A stretch of DNA of 31,268 bases from a virus, in the IMG/VR virus record IMGVR_UViG_3300017773_000079, positions 1 to 31,268 of that record; one strand, given 5' to 3'. The notes under the pieces were generated by a model that did no database searches, was not told the origin of the DNA, and was given only the letters and a program-made list of their open reading frames with translations. Of this stretch, positions 18,309 through 28,666 are shown in pieces. Within the stretch, counting starts at the first letter, position 1. Each line of letters opens with the position of its first letter. The translations under genes were made by a program, and so were the position numbers.

Positions 18309-18770
18309 CTATACCCCCGTTATGGTGGTGGTGTTGCAATCAAATCGACGCGACCCGAGCGTATCGGCCTCGTCCGTGAATTCGTTTTCGGCGTCCTCGA
18401 CGCTTTTTGCGTTGGTCGGGAACGCCATGGTGATCCAGGTATCTGCGTGCGCGTAGATCACCTGCTTGCGCCCAGCGGCCGCGGGGATGACCTGGTAGCC
18501 CTCTACCTCGATGGTCTCGCCGTCGCCCGTGTGAAAGGCTGCGTGGCCCTGGACGATGACAATCGTCGGGAGCTTGATGAGGGTGGCACAGAGCACGATG
18601 CCCGCCGGCACGACAATCGTGCGTGCGTACATTCCAGCGTGCAGGACATGAGAGGTCTCGAGCACGACCTGGGGTTCCTGTCGGACCAGTTGCTCGAACG
18701 CTCGGACTTGCTCGATCGTCTCGGCGGTCATTGCCGGGATCGTGGTTGTGGTCGCTGCCAGGGCTGTCAT
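18309..18770 (-). CDS. Cupin-like phage structural-module protein (153 aa)
   Basis: The start is ATG 18770, which overlaps the stop of the GNAT gene (ATGA); the longer open frame upstream is not real. After a Thr/Ala-rich N-terminus, residues 38-117 form a small beta-barrel pattern: SHVLHAGMYARTIVVPAG, TIVIVQGHAAFHTGDGETIEVEGYQVIPAAAGRKQVIYAHADT. This matches a family of small cupin-like proteins often found in phage structural operons. Histidines at 41, 44, 80 and 108 could bind a metal, but the exact cupin motif is not complete enough to claim catalysis. The function in the virion is unknown. The acidic tail (SVEDAENEFTDEAD) may be flexible. Confidence 0.72.
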   Translation of the reverse strand: MTALAATTTTIPAMTAETIEQVRAFEQLVRQEPQVVLETSHVLHAGMYARTIVVPAGIVLCATLIKLPTIVIVQGHAAFHTGDGETIEVEGYQVIPAAAGRKQVIYAHADTWITMAFPTNAKSVEDAENEFTDEADTLGSRRFDCNTTTITGV

Positions 18771-19216
18771 GCTGCCAGCCGCCGATAGAAAACGGTGTTG
18801 GCGGGCGCGTAGCCGGATCGCGGCAGGATGACCGACAGCGGACTGTCCGGTCGCGCGCTCAACAAAAGGACACCCGCCCCGAGCTCCTCGGACAGGCTCT
18901 CGGCTTTCCGTAACAGTTTGATGCCGGCGCCGCCGCGGCGATGCCTGGCGTCCACGAAATAGCTCTCGGCTGTCGCGCACGTCATATTGTAATGCGGGAG
19001 GACCGAGACGATCAGGCTCAAGAAACCAATCAATCTATCCCCCTGGTGCGCGCCCAGAATGTGCAGTAGTCCCGCTGCCTCCATCGATCGATAGATATGT
19101 GCCTTGTAGGACGGCATAGGCAGGTCATCGATGGCCGCTTCGGCGCGGTATGCGTCGGCCAGCGCGTCGAACTCAGGCGCGCTGGTGAGCTCCTCTAGGG
19201 TTATCTGTCGGATCAT
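18767..19216 (-). CDS. GNAT-family acetyltransferase, structural-module type (149 aa)
   Basis: A GNAT fold is suggested by RLIGFLSLIV (beta strand 4 region, 61-70), the acetyl-CoA pyrophosphate loop RRGGAG at residues 93-98 followed by IKLLRKAESLSEELGA, and a C-terminal SGYAPANTVFYRRL. The family moves acyl groups from acyl-CoA (sometimes acyl-ACP) to an amine. This subtype, with conserved HYN and YFVDARHRRGGAG segments, is recurrent between nozzle and internal virion genes in podophages, but its substrate is not known to me. It overlaps both neighbours by ATGA (nozzle stop upstream, cupin-like start downstream). A role in modifying a virion or host protein is an inference from location only. 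Confidence 0.85.
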   Translation of the reverse strand: MIRQITLEELTSAPEFDALADAYRAEAAIDDLPMPSYKAHIYRSMEAAGLLHILGAHQGDRLIGFLSLIVSVLPHYNMTCATAESYFVDARHRRGGAGIKLLRKAESLSEELGAGVLLLSARPDSPLSVILPRSGYAPANTVFYRRLAA

Positions 19217-21921
19217 GAGCTTGTATCGAGCTCCGGAGACAGGGCGAGGATGGTTGCCGGCAAAGGTGCGGTGCCCTGCAGCAACACGCGGATGTCGTCG
19301 TCGAAGCCGGCAGTGACGCCGAGGCGCAGTTCGCCCGAGAAGAAATTAACCGGATCGCCATCGATGTCGGTCGCTGCGCGCAGGTCGAGCTCTGTTGCGG
19401 TCCCCGTGACACCGTCCTCGACCGTCGCCAGGGAGAGCGCCCCCTCGCCTGTTTCCATAACGACAAGGATGACATCGGCGATTGATTTGGGTCGCCCCAG
19501 TGCGGACCCGTTATTCGATCCGAACGACAATTTCAGCGATTTAAATTTTCGGTCGTATTGCAGGCCGACGTGAACCAGCGACGCCTCGGCATCGAGCGTG
19601 ATCGCACCGCTGCTCACCACCTTCGATGCCTGGACCGCGCCGTCCGCAAAAATCTGAACGGTCTCTCCCTCCAGATGGCCGAGCCCGGAGATCGCGGATA
19701 CTTTTTCGCGGATCTCGCCGCCCGTCTTATATGTGCCGAACGCGGTCGTGTTCACGTTGACGCTGGATGTATCCTGCAGCTCGAAGGTGTTGGTGGTGAC
19801 GCCAGCCACCTTGAAACTTGTGTTGTTGAGTTCTGTCATGCCGACCACGCGGGTGATCCGGATGTCATCACCGTTGCTCAGACCATGGCTCGCACTGGTG
19901 ACGACGCCGGGGTTTGCTTTCGTGACGCCGGTGATCGCGAGCGGATTGTCGAGCGTCAGGCCGGAGTCGACATAGAAGGCGTCTTCCTGCAGATCCTCAT
20001 CACCATTAAAAATCTTCTCCATGCATTCGATCGTGCGAACGGTCGACCCGTTGATCTCGCGTTTGACGACGATCCACACCTCATCTCGAGCGGCGGAAGA
20101 TTTGAATTGGCCGCTGGCCGCTTGACCAGGAATAGTTGTTACACTTTCGACGACCGCGTTGGCGCCCTGGAAGCTGCCGCCAATGATATGCCGCGACCAT
20201 CCAAGGACGTCCTGGTCCGGTTGATAGGTGAGCGCTGATAACTGCCCGTCCCCGCGCACGCACCAGATCATGCTGTCCGGCTCTTGCTGGAATGCCATCT
20301 GGACGACACCGTCTTTTAGCACGCGGTCATTTAAGAGTGTCAGGTCGAACGCATCGAAACCCTCGAGGCCGTTGGACTGGATGACGTCCGCGAACTCGAC
20401 AATCTTTCGACCTTGCTTTTGGGCAAACACCAACCGGGACCGGATCTCGACCGGCGGGACCTTCGCGCAGCCGGACGTCACTTCGAAGTCCGCGGCGATG
20501 TCGCTCGGCGTCAGGATCGCGCCTTCGCTTCGCAGCGTCCAGTTCCCGTCCTGCGTGCCGATGATTGGTTTCTTACGGGCTGCGAACCAGAGGATCGTGT
20601 TGACCCGCTGGGCTGCCAGGCGAAACACGATCGAGCTGTCGTCGAGGGTGTCGCCTTCTTTGTCTGAATCCTGAAAGTTCTCGATGTCGCCGCTGACCGA
20701 CAGCCAAAACTTTTGCGGCTCTTTCAGGGTCGATGCCAGGGCCATGCGTTGCTGAATGAAACTGATCGCAGACGGCCATCCATCGGTGTCGTTGTATTCG
20801 CCAAGGCGCCAGTCGGTGGTGGTGCCGGTTGGCAGGGCTTCGCCGAGCACGTCCGCCGTGACGTTGAGGGTGTCTGTGAAACCGACGATCTGAGCGAACC
20901 CAAAATTTGAGCCGGACTTCATGCGAAGCATTCGCCCAACATCCGTCGCTCGGAAACCGAGGTCGTCATTGATGCCGGTGACAGCGGAAGCGGTGATCGT
21001 CACACCAAGACCGGTCCCGGCGGATGACGTCATTGTGGTCGTCTCGTCGTTCAGGTCGAGGTAGGGCCCGTCCTTAAACAGCACCTGCGTGAGCGACCAG
21101 GACGAATGACCAAACCGGTCGAGGCGATAGGGTCGCACCGCACCGCCCAGCGCGAGGTACATGACGTCGGCCGACTGCACATATGAGATATTGGGGAGGT
21201 CTGCCTCGAGGAAGGGGGATTGCAACTCGACGGGGACGTTGTCGAGGATCTCGATATTGTCGACTGACACGGTCTTCGCCATGTCGTTCTGGAACTCCAC
21301 AAAAAACGGCGAGGCTGCCGGTGTGAAGGCGACGGTGTGATATCCGACTTTGCTGACCTTGTCGGCGAGGAGCTGCGAGCCGCCGGCGGAGGATCCAACG
21401 CGGACGGTAACCTTGTCGCCCGCCGCACCGTGGACGGTGAAACGCATGACATGCTCGACGCCGGTGGTCGACGTTGTCACCGATTGCTGGGCCCGCCCTC
21501 CGCTTGCCGAGATGATCATTCGATCGTTGGTGGCGTCGTGGGTCAGGCTGCCCGCCGCGGCGGTCCAGTTCGAGACGTTATCGGCAAACGTCCCGTTCGT
21601 GATCGCCGCTCCGACATCCGCGGCGCTTATGATCGCCTGGTCTTTCAGGAACCGTATGGTCCCGGTCGACATTTCCAGGCAATAGGATTGGATATTGCTA
21701 AAGACAAATGGCAGCAACCAGGAGCGCACAGAATTTGATTTACAGTTCGCGATAAACCGCGTGCCGGGCCGGTACGTGAAACCGCCCTGGGGCAACGGGA
21801 TGATGTTTTCAAACTGACTGCCGGCGTTGGGGTATTTGGCAAACTGCAGTCGCGCCGCCATCTTCTCGCCAAACTCGCCAGCGTTAAACGATTCCTGGTT
21901 GGGTTGGGTCTGAAAACTCAA
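19213..21921 (-). CDS. Tail nozzle / tail tubular protein B-like (902 aa)
   Basis: This large, beta-rich protein sits directly after the adaptor, in the position of T7 gp12. The N-terminus QPNQESFNAGEFGEKMAARL followed by IIPLPQGGFTYRPGTRFIA is the hallmark start of this phage nozzle/stabilisation family. Internal segments such as FIQQRMALASTLKEPQKFW, NTILWFAARKKPIIGTQDG and KQGRKIVEFAD also fit. A central Ig-like or jelly-roll stretch is plausible (residues about 115-230), and a short beta module near 680-760 (VTKANPGVVTSASHGLSNG) resembles domains found in similar proteins. The protein should form the hexameric nozzle below the adaptor ring, through which DNA leaves. The ATG overlaps the adaptor stop by 4 bases. 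Length is slightly above the T7 gp12 size of about 794 residues. Confidence 0.85.
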   Translation of the reverse strand: MSFQTQPNQESFNAGEFGEKMAARLQFAKYPNAGSQFENIIPLPQGGFTYRPGTRFIANCKSNSVRSWLLPFVFSNIQSYCLEMSTGTIRFLKDQAIISAADVGAAITNGTFADNVSNWTAAAGSLTHDATNDRMIISASGGRAQQSVTTSTTGVEHVMRFTVHGAAGDKVTVRVGSSAGGSQLLADKVSKVGYHTVAFTPAASPFFVEFQNDMAKTVSVDNIEILDNVPVELQSPFLEADLPNISYVQSADVMYLALGGAVRPYRLDRFGHSSWSLTQVLFKDGPYLDLNDETTTMTSSAGTGLGVTITASAVTGINDDLGFRATDVGRMLRMKSGSNFGFAQIVGFTDTLNVTADVLGEALPTGTTTDWRLGEYNDTDGWPSAISFIQQRMALASTLKEPQKFWLSVSGDIENFQDSDKEGDTLDDSSIVFRLAAQRVNTILWFAARKKPIIGTQDGNWTLRSEGAILTPSDIAADFEVTSGCAKVPPVEIRSRLVFAQKQGRKIVEFADVIQSNGLEGFDAFDLTLLNDRVLKDGVVQMAFQQEPDSMIWCVRGDGQLSALTYQPDQDVLGWSRHIIGGSFQGANAVVESVTTIPGQAASGQFKSSAARDEVWIVVKREINGSTVRTIECMEKIFNGDEDLQEDAFYVDSGLTLDNPLAITGVTKANPGVVTSASHGLSNGDDIRITRVVGMTELNNTSFKVAGVTTNTFELQDTSSVNVNTTAFGTYKTGGEIREKVSAISGLGHLEGETVQIFADGAVQASKVVSSGAITLDAEASLVHVGLQYDRKFKSLKLSFGSNNGSALGRPKSIADVILVVMETGEGALSLATVEDGVTGTATELDLRAATDIDGDPVNFFSGELRLGVTAGFDDDIRVLLQGTAPLPATILALSPELDTSS

Positions 21922-23205: not shown

Positions 23206-24096
23206 CTAGCTCGTTGCGATGGCAGTGGTGTCATTGAGGTTGGCCTCAATAACGCCGGTGTCATCAATCATGACAGCGGCACCACTCATCATGTGGTTGA
23301 TGAAATACGCCGCACGATCACCGTGCCACGTAATGTCAGCACTGACGTTTTCGCCGCCGCTGACGTTTCGATCGGCCTTCTGAATCGCGTATCCCACGGC
23401 GTTCTTGTGGTACACGAAACACTTCGCCGTTGAGGTGCCTTGCCCTGGGAGGGCCGGAAGCATTCCCCATTTTACACCTAACCAGTCGCGCATCTTGCGA
23501 TGCCCCGGAATGCCCTCGCCAAAGGGTAATCCGTTGGCTCCGACATAGTCGGAAGAAGCGAATGATTCGACGGTCATCGCCTGGGCATAAGCACGCGGTG
23601 TTAACACACCATAACGCTGCCCGTCGTTTGGAACGCTGTTGGCGTCCAGGGCTTCGACCATTGAGATCAGCCCGGCCTGAATAGCCGCCGACGAGGTTAC
23701 CGCAAGGGTAACGGTCGATTGCGTGGTGCTATCGAGTACGGTCGTGATCTGCGAGTCCACCTTTCTCCCCAAGGCCATGGCGCCCGATTTTGCATAAGCG
23801 AGTCGGACATCGATATTGACTTTGGCTTCGTCAAGGCTGTCGCTCCATTCGCCAGCGTAGAAGTCTGCTAACGCAACGGATGGTGCAGTGTGCGTCACGT
23901 TCATCGGTGTGATTTCACCATGGCGTGACTTGGTGGTTGCGGTGCCGGTGCCCAGTTTCTGGAAGTGAGCGGTGGAACCAACGATACCGTCTTTGAGGAA
24001 GACGGTGTCCTTTAGCATTGAGCCTTCGCGTTGAAATACATGGTGTAAATCAGTCATGTACTCTTGTACGAAGGACGTCGTGATTGAAGTAGCCAT
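23206..24096 (-). CDS. Major capsid protein (296 aa)
   Basis: The start MATSITTSFVQEY at 24096 is preceded by TGGAGGC with a 7-base spacer; the 14 extra upstream codons are not supported. The protein has an HK97-like capsid pattern as seen in podophages: an N-terminal helix (FVQEYMTDLHHVFQREGSML), an E-loop-like DGIVGSTAHFQKLGTGTATTKSRHGEITP, an A-domain with GQRYGVLTPRAYAQAM, and the terminal VYHKNAVGYAIQKAD and ITWHGDRAAYFINHMMSGAAVMID. Length is typical for this family (about 300-340). It is the T7 gp10 counterpart by position, downstream of scaffold and followed by a terminator. I see no evident slippery sequence for a gp10B-type frameshift product. Confidence 0.9.
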   Translation of the reverse strand: MATSITTSFVQEYMTDLHHVFQREGSMLKDTVFLKDGIVGSTAHFQKLGTGTATTKSRHGEITPMNVTHTAPSVALADFYAGEWSDSLDEAKVNIDVRLAYAKSGAMALGRKVDSQITTVLDSTTQSTVTLAVTSSAAIQAGLISMVEALDANSVPNDGQRYGVLTPRAYAQAMTVESFASSDYVGANGLPFGEGIPGHRKMRDWLGVKWGMLPALPGQGTSTAKCFVYHKNAVGYAIQKADRNVSGGENVSADITWHGDRAAYFINHMMSGAAVMIDDTGVIEANLNDTTAIATS

Positions 24097-24276
24097 CTGG
24101 CTTGCCTCCATTCGAGAGTGTTGTCGAGTGGGGTGCAAACCTCTTCCGGGATAGCCGAGCGGAACGGTTGCGGGATGCCCTTCGCAGGGGCCGCGAATAG
24201 TTCCCAGTCAGCGCCTCAGAGTTGCGGTGTACGCTTGTCTGCCGGGCCGCAGAGCGGGGTGCCGGCGGGGCGTTGG
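24097..24276 (-). other. 180-bp non-coding leader between acyl carrier protein and major capsid genes
   Basis: This is one of only three large gaps in the operon. It contains the capsid Shine-Dalgarno site (24104-24110). I found no copy of the 15-bp promoter-like motif, no convincing -35/-10 pair and no terminator. Several GC-rich segments (for example around 24190-24265) could fold. An mRNA leader or processing region for high capsid expression is possible but unproven. Confidence 0.5.
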
Positions 24277-24519
24277 TTATTCGGAGACTGACGCCTCAGA
24301 ATTCTTGAGCCGATCGATGGCGCCGGAGAGGTCTGCCATTGTCGTGAACCCTCCGTCGAAGTCGGTCGGAATCTTGATGTCGTATGCCTCTTCGATCTCG
24401 AAGATGAGCTCGACAAAATCCAGGCTGTCGATTTGGAGATTCGAAATCTCGGTCGACGGTTGAATCCATTCGGCCGGCATTGCCGCTTTAGCGGCGACCA
24501 GCTCGGTTAACTTGTCCAT
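24277..24519 (-). CDS. Acyl carrier protein (80 aa) within the capsid module
   Basis: The start ATG 24519 overlaps the stop of the 85-aa gene (TGATG) and has AGG seven bases upstream. The sequence is a complete acyl carrier protein: helix 1 (MDKLTELVAAKAAM), EISNLQIDSLDFVELIFEIEEAYDIKIP with Ser32 in the DSL phosphopantetheine site, and helix 4 (TTMADLSGAIDRLKN). A holo-ACP synthase would attach 4'-phosphopantetheine at Ser32; the carrier would then hold acyl or malonyl groups as thioesters. No partner synthase, ligase or phosphopantetheinyl transferase is visible nearby. The only possible partners in the window are two GNAT-fold proteins. Placement between scaffold and capsid genes is unusual and suggests a virion- or assembly-linked role, or expression at high late levels. 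ACP identity is clear; function is not. Confidence 0.92.
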   Translation of the reverse strand: MDKLTELVAAKAAMPAEWIQPSTEISNLQIDSLDFVELIFEIEEAYDIKIPTDFDGGFTTMADLSGAIDRLKNSEASVSE

Positions 24520-24776
24520 CAGTGTACCTGCAGGTCCTCCCAAGAGGCCGGGTGCATGAACAGCGGCGTGGTGTTGCCCATCCATGCACCCTCGATGTTA
24601 AATTCAAAATACTCGATTGCTTCGTCGTTCGACATGCCGTGGCCGTCCATCAGGATCTCGATGACACGCTCGACCGCGTACACGACAACCGGCGGCTGAC
24701 CGCAGCGGTAGCCGACCCCGATGATCGCGGCATCGAAACCTCTCGCGACGGTCAGCTCGTCCGGGTCTGCAATCAT
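24519..24776 (-). CDS. Conserved 85-aa protein of unknown function
   Basis: The conserved core is FDAAIIGVGYRCGQPPVVVYAVERVIEILMDGHGMSNDEAIEYFEFNIEGAWMGNTTPLFM. Related small proteins with AIIGVxxRCGQ, a helix, and EAxEYFEFNxxGAxxGxxTP occur widely in phages and bacteria, as far as I recall. No biochemical role is known to me. Cys26 and the invariant Gly/Asn residues stand out. The ATG overlaps the scaffold stop (ATGA), and its TGA overlaps the acyl carrier protein start, so the three are translationally coupled. The place between scaffold and capsid raises the possibility of an assembly factor, without direct evidence. Confidence 0.82.
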   Translation of the reverse strand: MIADPDELTVARGFDAAIIGVGYRCGQPPVVVYAVERVIEILMDGHGMSNDEAIEYFEFNIEGAWMGNTTPLFMHPASWEDLQVH

Positions 24777-25633
24777 ACAGCTCGACCAGCTCCAACGACG
24801 CTTTCATTGCCGTGTAGCTTTTCCGCCAGGGCGGAGCGCTGCACCGATAGCGACGCCGCCTGCGATCGATCACCACGCTGATAGGCCGTGTGGATGTCGC
24901 GGGACAGTGTGTCGTACTGCGTCTGCATGTCCGCCGCTGCGTCGCTTCCGGCGATGCCGAAACGCAGTTGACCTTCGTTCGTCAGGCGCCCGACCTCTGC
25001 CATCTGGCGCACGAACGCGGGGTGGCTGCCGAGCAGCGTGCCGTCTCTGAGCTCGAGCTGCACGAGGTCAGGGGATGCCGTCAGGTAGTCGTTCGCAAAA
25101 GCGACATTCTCGTCGTAGCTGGATCCCCACTCCTTTCGGAGATCGGCCTCGGTTTTGGTCATATATTCCTGATCTCGCCGAGCGATTTCAGCCTTACCGG
25201 TGGCTTCGATCTCGAGATATTTCGACAGCATAGCGCTGACGACGGCCTGGCTCGCACCTTTGGCGTGCATGTCGGCGACGATCGCTTTGATCGGTGTCTG
25301 GTACTCCTCAGTGTCGTAAAGCTCGCTGTCGAAACCTTCCGGCTGCGACAGATCGTAATCGTCCAGGGTCTCGGGCACGCCCATCTGTTTGTTGAACTTG
25401 GCGCGGTCCTCATCCGACGCGTCGTCGCCTGGCATTTTCACGCGTTGGCTGAGTTCGCGGTTCGCCTCATAGAGCGCATTCGCCATGGCGGCCGGTGTTG
25501 TGTAGCGGCCGGCAAGACCGCGGACCTTGTCGTCCTCGATGCCGTCCATCCACGATTGCTGCTCGGTTGTTGCCTCAGTGGCCTCCGGGGTAGCCGTCTC
25601 CTCGACAGCGCCTTCGGTCATTTCTTCGGACAT
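24773..25633 (-). CDS. Scaffold / capsid assembly protein (286 aa)
   Basis: The protein is acidic and helical with a low-complexity N-terminus (MSEEMTEGAVEETATPEATEATTEQQSWMDGIEDDKVRGLAGRYTTPAAMANALYEANREL). It contains the typical phage scaffold middle (MPGDDASDEDRAKFNKQMGVPETLDDYDL), a helix region (AEIARRDQEYMTKTEADLRKEWGSSYDENVAFANDYL) and a basic C-terminus. It guides procapsid assembly and leaves before DNA packaging. An AGAGGAT site lies 8 bases before the ATG, and the upstream stop is 2 bases away. Position between portal and capsid agrees with T7 gene 9. Its stop overlaps the next ATG. Confidence 0.88.
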   Translation of the reverse strand: MSEEMTEGAVEETATPEATEATTEQQSWMDGIEDDKVRGLAGRYTTPAAMANALYEANRELSQRVKMPGDDASDEDRAKFNKQMGVPETLDDYDLSQPEGFDSELYDTEEYQTPIKAIVADMHAKGASQAVVSAMLSKYLEIEATGKAEIARRDQEYMTKTEADLRKEWGSSYDENVAFANDYLTASPDLVQLELRDGTLLGSHPAFVRQMAEVGRLTNEGQLRFGIAGSDAAADMQTQYDTLSRDIHTAYQRGDRSQAASLSVQRSALAEKLHGNESVVGAGRAV

Positions 25634-27981: not shown

Positions 27982-28197
27982 TTAAGCGGAGCCGCCTAAC
28001 AACGTGGCACGGCTGGTCGGGGCCGCTGACGCAACGCCGGTCCCGGTCGTGTTCGTCGTGTCACCTAACCCGACGCGTGTCCGAGCCAGGCGAGACGCCT
28101 CGGCCTTCTTCTTCTTGACCTCCGCGTCAGTCTCCTTGTCGGGGACGGGGGGCGCCTCCGGTGGCAGTGCTGGTTTCGATGGCGCAAATTTACCCAT
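27982..28197 (-). CDS. Small proline-rich RATLLG-tail protein, short form (71 aa)
   Basis: ATG 28197 is chosen because GGAGG lies 8 bases upstream and because the family begins M-x-K/F-x-P-x-x-P. The sequence is MGKFAPSKPALPPEAPPVPDK, then a charged helix (EVKKKKAEASRLARTRVGLGD), then GVASAAPTSRATLLGGSA. This proline-rich start, basic helix and TLLG end is a known small phage protein type near the portal, without an assigned function. The start overlaps the last 8 bases of the GNAT gene. Confidence 0.78.
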   Translation of the reverse strand: MGKFAPSKPALPPEAPPVPDKETDAEVKKKKAEASRLARTRVGLGDTTNTTGTGVASAAPTSRATLLGGSA

Positions 28198-28666
28198 TGG
28201 CGGATCCTCCAAGATCGGCGGCGAGTGTGGGCCCGACATCGTCGAACCCGTGTGATTTCATGAGGCGGACGAACAGCATCTGTTCGACCTTGTTGAGACC
28301 GGCGGTGGCGGTCGTGAATACGTGAGAGCAGTTGCGATCGGCAGCCCATTGCCGGATGTCGTTGACGAGGATGTTCGAGACGTCGCCGCGGCGGTGTTCC
28401 TTCACCACCCAGAACTTGCAGACGTAACAAAGGGGGCGCAGATGAAACTCGTAGCTCGCCGCGACAAACGCGCCGGCGACCGGTACGTGATCGACCTCGA
28501 CCAATAGGATGTCAGTCGCCAGGCTCTCGACCAGCGACGTCAGGTATTGCCGGCCGACGTCACGCGACCAGGACAGATTCCAATCGCTTTCCGCATTCAT
28601 GTCCTCGGCCCGGTCGAGGATGAAATCAATATCTCCAACCGTTCCAGCACGTGATGTGAGCAACAT
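28190..28666 (-). CDS. GNAT-fold acetyltransferase-like protein (158 aa)
   Basis: The start ATG 28666 overlaps the terminase stop (TGATG); upstream in-frame codons belong to terminase. GNAT features are VPVAGAFVAASYEF (60-73), PLCYVCKFWVVKEHRRGDVSNILVNDIRQWAADRNC (78-113), with HRRGDVSNIL in place of the acetyl-CoA loop, and a C-terminal LMKSHGFDDVGPTL. The loop lacks the classic second glycine (GxG/A replaced by GDV), so cofactor binding may be weakened. GNAT-like proteins between large terminase and portal genes occur in other podophages; the substrate is unknown to me. Confidence 0.8.
   Translation of the reverse strand: MLLTSRAGTVGDIDFILDRAEDMNAESDWNLSWSRDVGRQYLTSLVESLATDILLVEVDHVPVAGAFVAASYEFHLRPLCYVCKFWVVKEHRRGDVSNILVNDIRQWAADRNCSHVFTTATAGLNKVEQMLFVRLMKSHGFDDVGPTLAADLGGSANG

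What the first reader, a model, noticed from the sequence alone, without database searches (positions are those of the whole stretch)
24277..24519. A complete acyl carrier protein encoded between scaffold and major capsid genes
The DSL phosphopantetheine site (Ser32) and four-helix pattern are intact, so the protein is probably functional. A metabolic carrier translationally coupled to capsid assembly genes is unusual. Possible roles are a lipid- or acyl-linked virion modification, diversion of host fatty-acid or lipid-A synthesis late in infection, or interference with a host ACP-dependent process.
Basis: partly seen in the sequence, partly recalled or inferred. Interest (0 to 1): 0.75.

Follow-up and report, generated by a model that had tools for sequence, protein, structure and literature searches.

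The report
Phage acyl carrier protein beside capsid genes
A marine phage carries a real, conserved acyl carrier protein gene between its scaffold and major capsid genes, but related phages show that this spot is a parking slot for exchangeable small genes, so the protein probably acts on host lipid (acyl) chemistry and is not needed to build the capsid.

Summary
Window 24519-24277 (minus strand) encodes an 80-aa stand-alone acyl carrier protein (ACP): Pfam PP-binding over its cut-off, PHROG 'acyl carrier protein', predicted ACP fold. Twelve other IMG/VR contigs carry an ortholog at the same place; Ser32 is invariant and the gene is under purifying selection, so this is a functional and probably phosphopantetheinylated ACP. 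The preceding Asp is Glu in 6 of 9 sequences. The special link to capsid assembly is not supported. Across 71 compared scaffold-to-capsid intervals of related phages this spot is a cargo slot: often empty, otherwise holding nucleases, a methyltransferase-like gene or unknown small genes. ACP occurs in only one clade; close relatives (85% identical capsid protein) lack it. The nearest other phage ACP sits in a replication module. Phage ACPs are a known kind. Best reading: a late-expressed cargo gene whose ACP is charged by the host and works in host acyl/lipid metabolism; the exact step is inferred. The capsid gene is separated from the ACP by a strongly covarying structured RNA leader (24274-24097, minus strand) that ends at the capsid start codon and has no Rfam match; this side finding may be more novel than the ACP.

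The parts
24277..24519 (-). acyl carrier protein, 80 aa, phosphopantetheine site Ser32 (IDSLD)
   Evidence: PF00550 E 5e-9, phrog_5934, orthologs and invariant Ser, ACP fold
24519..24776 (-). 85-aa phage protein of unknown function (phrog_13182), overlaps the scaffold stop and the ACP start
   Evidence: phrog_13182 E 5e-21; 412 related loci in viral contigs; no PDB match
24773..25633 (-). scaffold/capsid-assembly protein, 286 aa (by position and weak PHROG match)
   Evidence: phrog_3742 (unknown) and phrog_458 'protease'; always upstream of the capsid gene in relatives
24097..24274 (-). structured RNA leader of the capsid gene, between ACP stop and capsid ATG
   Evidence: alignment and covariation; found immediately before the capsid start in independent loci; no Rfam match
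23206..24096 (-). major capsid protein (start at ATG 24096; the listed ORF with TTG 24138 is longer)
   Evidence: PF19821 E 4e-54, phrog_3437 major head protein
28190..28666 (-). GNAT acetyltransferase-like protein between terminase and portal (candidate acyl-transferring partner, considered and not supported)
   Evidence: PF00583 E 3e-4, phrog_1249; also present in relatives without ACP
18767..19216 (-). second GNAT acetyltransferase-like protein
   Evidence: PF00583 E 1e-5, phrog_1249; absent from ACP-bearing relatives L012 and L023

Best explanation
A cargo (auxiliary/moron) gene encoding a genuine, phosphopantetheine-bearing acyl carrier protein, carried in an exchangeable slot of the late structural operon. 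Shown: it is an ACP; its serine and its enzyme-docking helix II are conserved; it is kept by selection; the slot is exchangeable; the structural genes around it occur without it. Inferred: it is made late together with structural proteins, charged on Ser32 by the host holo-ACP synthase (no synthase is encoded in the record), and then joins the host's acyl-ACP pool, taking up 4'-phosphopantetheine and acyl chains and changing the flux into phospholipid or lipid-A acylation of a probably alphaproteobacterial host. It acts in trans on host metabolism, not as part of the capsid.
For: ACP identity. Ser32 and helix II (L33, F35, E37-E43, apart from conservative changes) invariant across orthologs, including the 45-47% identical L036 protein. 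Purifying selection, dN/dS 0.05-0.23 (for pairs with dS below 1: 0.05 to 0.23). Slot: 71 non-identical scaffold-capsid intervals of 111-1965 bp; ACP in 10 rows, all one capsid clade, others empty or with HNH-nuclease-like, methyltransferase-like and unknown small ORFs. Capsid, scaffold, portal and the 85-aa gene occur without ACP in L014-L017. No ACP beside the 85-aa gene outside the clade. No PF01648 synthase in 21 records. Capsid relatives in GTDB genomes are mostly Alphaproteobacteria; best cellular ACP matches include S. meliloti AcpXL and NodF-type ACPs, with a PDB best match to the specialised ACP of Rhodopseudomonas.
Against: No acyl enzyme is encoded beside it, so the pathway step is unknown. 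In 6 of 9 sequences the residue before Ser is Glu, not the usual Asp, which by my own knowledge of E. coli AcpP could weaken AcpS recognition. ACPs have been reported in purified virions of other phages (PMC7760394; one spectrum in PMC10892097), which keeps a virion role open. Late expression is inferred from position only. Host assignment is indirect. The plasmid collection that gave the AcpXL and NodF matches lacks most chromosomal AcpP genes.
Confidence: 0.5

Rival explanations
1. Inhibitor/decoy: late overproduction of (partly apo) phage ACP drains CoA-derived phosphopantetheine and inhibits the host acyltransferases that feed phospholipid synthesis, stopping membrane growth before lysis.
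For: A review reports that excess ACP stops growth of E. coli through inhibition of glycerol-3-phosphate acyltransferase, apo-ACP more strongly than holo-ACP (PMC3896788). The gene sits in the structural operon. Other phages have ACP-like proteins without the serine (Mutine GGDDLD, an ICP1 neighbour gene LDELD), which must work without the prosthetic group.
Against: Here Ser32 is invariant, which a pure apo-decoy would not need. Expression level is unknown.
Confidence: 0.17
2. Virion part or assembly partner: the ACP binds scaffold, 85-aa protein or capsid protein and travels in, or helps to build, the head.
For: Position and overlap with the 85-aa gene and, through it, the scaffold. ACPs detected by mass spectrometry in virions of Erwinia jumbo phages (PMC7760394) and by one spectrum in Sajous1 (PMC10892097).
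Against: Phages with 84-85% identical capsid protein and the same scaffold and 85-aa genes lack it; the slot content varies freely; L036 has a related ACP in a replication module.
Confidence: 0.12
3. Acyl donor for a phage acyltransferase: holo-acyl-ACP feeds one of the two GNAT-like proteins of the operon, which acylates a virion or host protein.
For: Two GNAT-like genes in the same operon; some GNAT-fold enzymes use acyl-ACP (established knowledge: LuxI, FeeM).
Against: The terminase-portal GNAT is present in relatives without ACP (L015, L017, L018, L028, L031); the second GNAT was found only with the window's closest kin and not in ACP-bearing L012 and L023. No co-occurrence.
Confidence: 0.07
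4. AcpXL-like diversion: the protein mimics the ACP of very-long-chain acylation of lipid A in Alphaproteobacteria and changes the outer membrane, for example against superinfection.
For: Best PDB match is the specialised ACP RPA2022; a hit to S. meliloti AcpXL; in a small tree the phage family lies outside the well-supported AcpP group, near AcpXL, a rhizobial ACP and NodF.
Against: Scores against ordinary ACPs are practically tied (42.9 against 42.4 and 42.2 bits), the tree is mostly unresolved, and the C-terminal part of AcpXL is not matched.
Confidence: 0.1

Closest known systems
phrog_5934 phage acyl carrier proteins (ICP1 and others; phiCbK-like and P-HM1 by weak tblastn matches)
   Same: Small stand-alone ACP encoded by a tailed phage; the window protein matches this PHROG at E 4e-11.
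   Different: Those examined lie among unknown or nucleotide-metabolism genes, not between scaffold and capsid; the window family falls outside the group they form with AcpP (95/90 support).
ACP of Caudoviricetes sp. ctuI7215 (MW202777)
   Same: ACP (phrog_5934) about 0.9 kb before a major capsid gene.
   Different: Different capsid family (phrog_10), a 250-aa unknown gene between, DSF instead of DSL; in the tree it groups with AcpP-type proteins.
L036 phage ACP (IMGVR_UViG_3300030207_003729)
   Same: Closest relative outside the clade: 45-47% identity, same N-terminal AMPxEWI and helix II.
   Different: Lies between a DatZ-like HD gene and a helicase, beside PurZ-like, MazG-like and polymerase A genes, not in the head module.
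Specialised ACPs of Alphaproteobacteria (AcpXL, RPA2022, NodF)
   Same: Best structural match; shared SLDF...IKIP core.
   Different: Longer C-terminal part, encoded with ketosynthases and dehydratases; no such enzymes here.
acpP in Rhodobacteraceae prophages (PMC8224337), Alteromonas phage R22Y (PMC11705849), Erythrobacter phage R6L (PMC5463345)
   Same: Phage-borne ACP treated as an auxiliary metabolic gene.
   Different: In three of the prophages it comes as fabG-acpP-fabF; the window has the ACP alone. Sequence relation not tested here.

Membership tests
Acyl carrier protein / PP-binding (PF00550) | Profile score over the curated cut-off | tested here: met
   36.7 bits against 20.8
Acyl carrier protein / PP-binding (PF00550) | Phosphopantetheine serine at the start of helix II, conserved in orthologs | tested here: met
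   Ser32 invariant in 9 distinct orthologs and L036
Acyl carrier protein / PP-binding (PF00550) | ACP fold (helical bundle) | tested here: met
   Model pLDDT 79; best PDB matches are ACPs at TM 0.7-0.8; third helix not resolved
Acyl carrier protein / PP-binding (PF00550) | Serine carries 4'-phosphopantetheine in vivo | not testable with these tools
   needs mass spectrometry
Housekeeping FAS II ACP (AcpP, TIGR00517) | Score over the equivalog cut-off | tested here: not met
   38.4 bits against 70.45
AcpXL (PRK06508) very-long-chain ACP | Score over the equivalog cut-off, full-length match | tested here: not met
   36.3 bits against 83, N-terminal 52 residues only; that this model stands for AcpXL is my own knowledge
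phrog_5934 phage ACP | Best PHROG match over nearly full length | tested here: met
   E 4.1e-11, residues 2-74 on profile 17-90 of 93
Virion protein | Present in purified particles | not testable with these tools
   no isolate of this clade; precedents in other phages only
Core capsid-assembly gene | Present wherever the same scaffold and capsid genes are | tested here: not met
   absent in L014-L017 and in 61 of 71 compared intervals

The most novel reading that the evidence does not exclude
A phosphopantetheinylated phage ACP made with the head proteins acts inside virion assembly: it binds or acylates scaffold, the 85-aa protein or capsid protein through its prosthetic group, which would be a first covalent acyl-carrier step in the assembly of a tailed-phage head.
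Probability: 0.07. Interest if true: 0.85.

Novelty: new member of a known kind. Interest (0 to 1): 0.42.

Why it matters
It adds a distinct, selectively maintained family of phage ACPs with an intact modification site, most likely in phages of Alphaproteobacteria, and so gives a clean case for asking what phage ACPs, an old annotation of unknown purpose, do to host acyl metabolism. It also shows that the gap between scaffold and capsid genes of these phages is a cargo slot, which cautions against reading function from that neighbourhood, and it exposed a conserved regulatory RNA in front of the capsid gene.

Tried and rejected
Two genome-contig scans: the ACP profile found nothing; the capsid profile was used for the host clue. 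A direct link to the GNATs was rejected for lack of co-occurrence. A phage-encoded holo-ACP synthase was sought and not found, but the records are fragments. The structure of the 85-aa neighbour (pLDDT 66) gave no usable PDB match, with VIA Z under 5, and matched only viral unknowns in BFVD. MT838226 'Bacteriophage sp.', the best tblastn hit in the phage collection for one ortholog, is a fab gene cluster (fabD, fabG, fabF) and was rejected as a phage example. A tree to place the ACP among cellular ACPs was mostly unresolved (15 of 18 inner branches open). Translation coupling to the capsid gene was rejected because of the intervening leader. Single-sequence folding of the leader was uninformative (z -0.9); covariation was needed. 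Paper searches found no study of an ACP between scaffold and capsid genes and none of the capsid leader, in the open-access library only.

Full report
What is there. The window is a whole IMG/VR virus record of 31,268 bases that holds the structural half of a podovirus-like phage: terminase, a portal of the head-tail connector family, scaffold-type protein, major capsid protein, tail tube proteins and a 4,056-aa protein, on the minus strand. The finding's coordinates give an 80-aa protein on the minus strand. Pfam PP-binding scores 36.7 bits against a cut-off of 20.8, PHROG calls it acyl carrier protein, and several NCBIfam ACP models match below their equivalog cut-offs. A profile of the family matches ACP after ACP in the PDB. 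The AlphaFold model (mean pLDDT 79) has helices 3-12, 25-28, 32-46 and 61-73, and its Foldseek matches are ACPs, first the specialised ACP of Rhodopseudomonas palustris.

Is it alive? Orthologs lie at the same place in 12 other contigs. Ser32 and nearly all of helix II, the docking surface for ACP enzymes, are invariant. Pairwise dN/dS is 0.05 to 0.23, although dS is saturated for many pairs. The residue before the serine is Asp in three sequences and Glu in six. By my own knowledge of E. coli AcpP this Asp matters for AcpS, so modification by the host enzyme is likely but not certain. No holo-ACP synthase was found in 21 records, which are fragments.

Anatomy. The order of transcription is scaffold, an 85-aa protein, ACP, a 180-base gap, capsid gene. 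The scaffold and 85-aa genes overlap by four bases and the 85-aa stop overlaps the ACP start (TGATG). So translational coupling is plausible within this block but does not reach the capsid gene. In L002, L003 and L005 another small gene lies between the 85-aa gene and the ACP, and in L007 two minus-strand ORFs do, so even this coupling is not essential.

The slot. I compared 71 non-identical scaffold-to-capsid intervals from related phages. They range from 111 to 1,965 bases. Many hold nothing but a leader. Others hold the 85-aa gene alone, a family of about 75-95 aa with the motif HVNQHVIKRN, HNH-nuclease-like genes (L029, L166, L171), a methyltransferase-like gene (L149) or unknown ORFs; these names are my reading of the translations and were not profile-tested. 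The ACP is in 10 rows, all from one clade of capsid proteins (L007, with a cut-off capsid gene, is an additional case). L014, L015, L016 and L017, with capsid proteins 84-85% identical to the window's, have the scaffold and the 85-aa gene but no ACP, and PF00550 finds no ACP in the L014 and L017 records or in the records of the more distant relatives tested. The 85-aa family is common in viral contigs (412 matches) and among the 80 loci fetched only this clade has an ACP next to it. Of 80 capsid relatives in GTDB genomes, mostly Alphaproteobacteria, none has an ACP or the 85-aa gene nearby. This pattern says that the ACP is a cargo gene, gained once in this clade and then kept, and not a part of the capsid machinery.

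Relatives of the ACP. The nearest protein outside the clade, 45-47% identical, is in L036, between a DatZ-like gene and a helicase, close to PurZ-like, MazG-like and polymerase genes. The same ACP type thus serves in a wholly different module. Among phage records, ACPs occur in kutterviruses, ICP1, phiCbK-like phages, cyanophages and jumbo phages, with many of these matches weak. One, ctuI7215, has an ACP about 0.9 kb before its capsid gene. Mutine and one of two neighbouring ICP1 ACP-like genes lack the serine, so not all phage ACP-like proteins can carry the prosthetic group; the window family can. A small tree leaves most branches open but puts AcpP and the other sampled phage ACPs in a supported group (95/90) that excludes the window family, AcpXL, a rhizobial ACP and NodF.

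How it most likely works. Shown: a conserved ACP with an intact attachment site, in an exchangeable late-operon slot. Inferred: late expression, charging by host AcpS, entry into host acyl-ACP traffic, and a change in lipid or lipid-A acylation. A related possibility is inhibition by excess ACP, which is reported for E. coli (PMC3896788). A virion role cannot be excluded, since ACPs were seen by mass spectrometry in virions of Erwinia jumbo phages (PMC7760394) and by a single spectrum in Sajous1 (PMC10892097). Acylation by the phage GNATs is not supported by co-occurrence.

Side finding. The gap between ACP and capsid gene is a structured RNA. A covariance model built from 13 leaders finds further leaders directly before the capsid start in loci not used to build it, for example L157 at 93 bits and L147 at 92 bits. 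On 22 such matches, 16 of 22 pairs show changes on both sides, 94.9% of cells pair, and the covariation score is 0.398 against 0.129 in shuffles and at most 0.07 when slid; that alignment was fitted to the model, which favours it. A last hairpin, predicted by single-sequence folding in most leaders, often encloses the ribosome-binding site. Rfam has no match. It is probably a translational control element of the capsid gene. It is present with or without the ACP.

Verdict. A real and conserved phage ACP, a new family of a known kind, in an unusual but exchangeable position.

Noticed in passing
window 24097-24274 (minus strand); also L157 3819-3994, L147 3824-4000, L160 3830-3998 and others: Structured RNA leader of the major capsid gene with strong covariation, always ending at the capsid start codon, with a last hairpin that often covers the ribosome-binding site; no Rfam match.
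   Followed up: yes
L008 1731-1956, L023 4898-5117, L025 1620-1832: Group I introns (RF00028) interrupt the major capsid gene in three relatives; the window copy has none.
   Followed up: partly
L036 3707-10228: A phage contig with a 2-aminoadenine-type cluster (PurZ-like, DatZ-like, MazG-like, polymerase A) carries an ACP gene overlapping the DatZ-like gene.
   Followed up: partly
L050 3845-4156 and L051 3533-3874: ACP-like proteins of kuttervirus Mutine (GGDDLD) and ICP1 (LDELD) lack the phosphopantetheine serine, so phages also keep ACP-like proteins that cannot be charged at that site.
   Followed up: no
window 24519-24776: 85-aa family phrog_13182: very common in viral contigs (412 matches), also in SPO1-like Bacillus phages, unknown function, no PDB fold match.
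   Followed up: partly
window 18767-19216 and 28190-28666: Two GNAT-like acetyltransferase genes within the structural operon; the second (between terminase and portal) is conserved in distant relatives.
   Followed up: partly
window 19213-21921: The tail tube protein carries an insert matching the E1_FCCH domain (PF16190, E 4e-12).
   Followed up: no
L042 (MT838226.1): A record deposited as 'Bacteriophage sp.' from faeces is a bacterial-type fatty acid synthesis cluster (acpP, fabD, fabG, fabF), so phage-collection hits to ACP need checking.
   Followed up: yes
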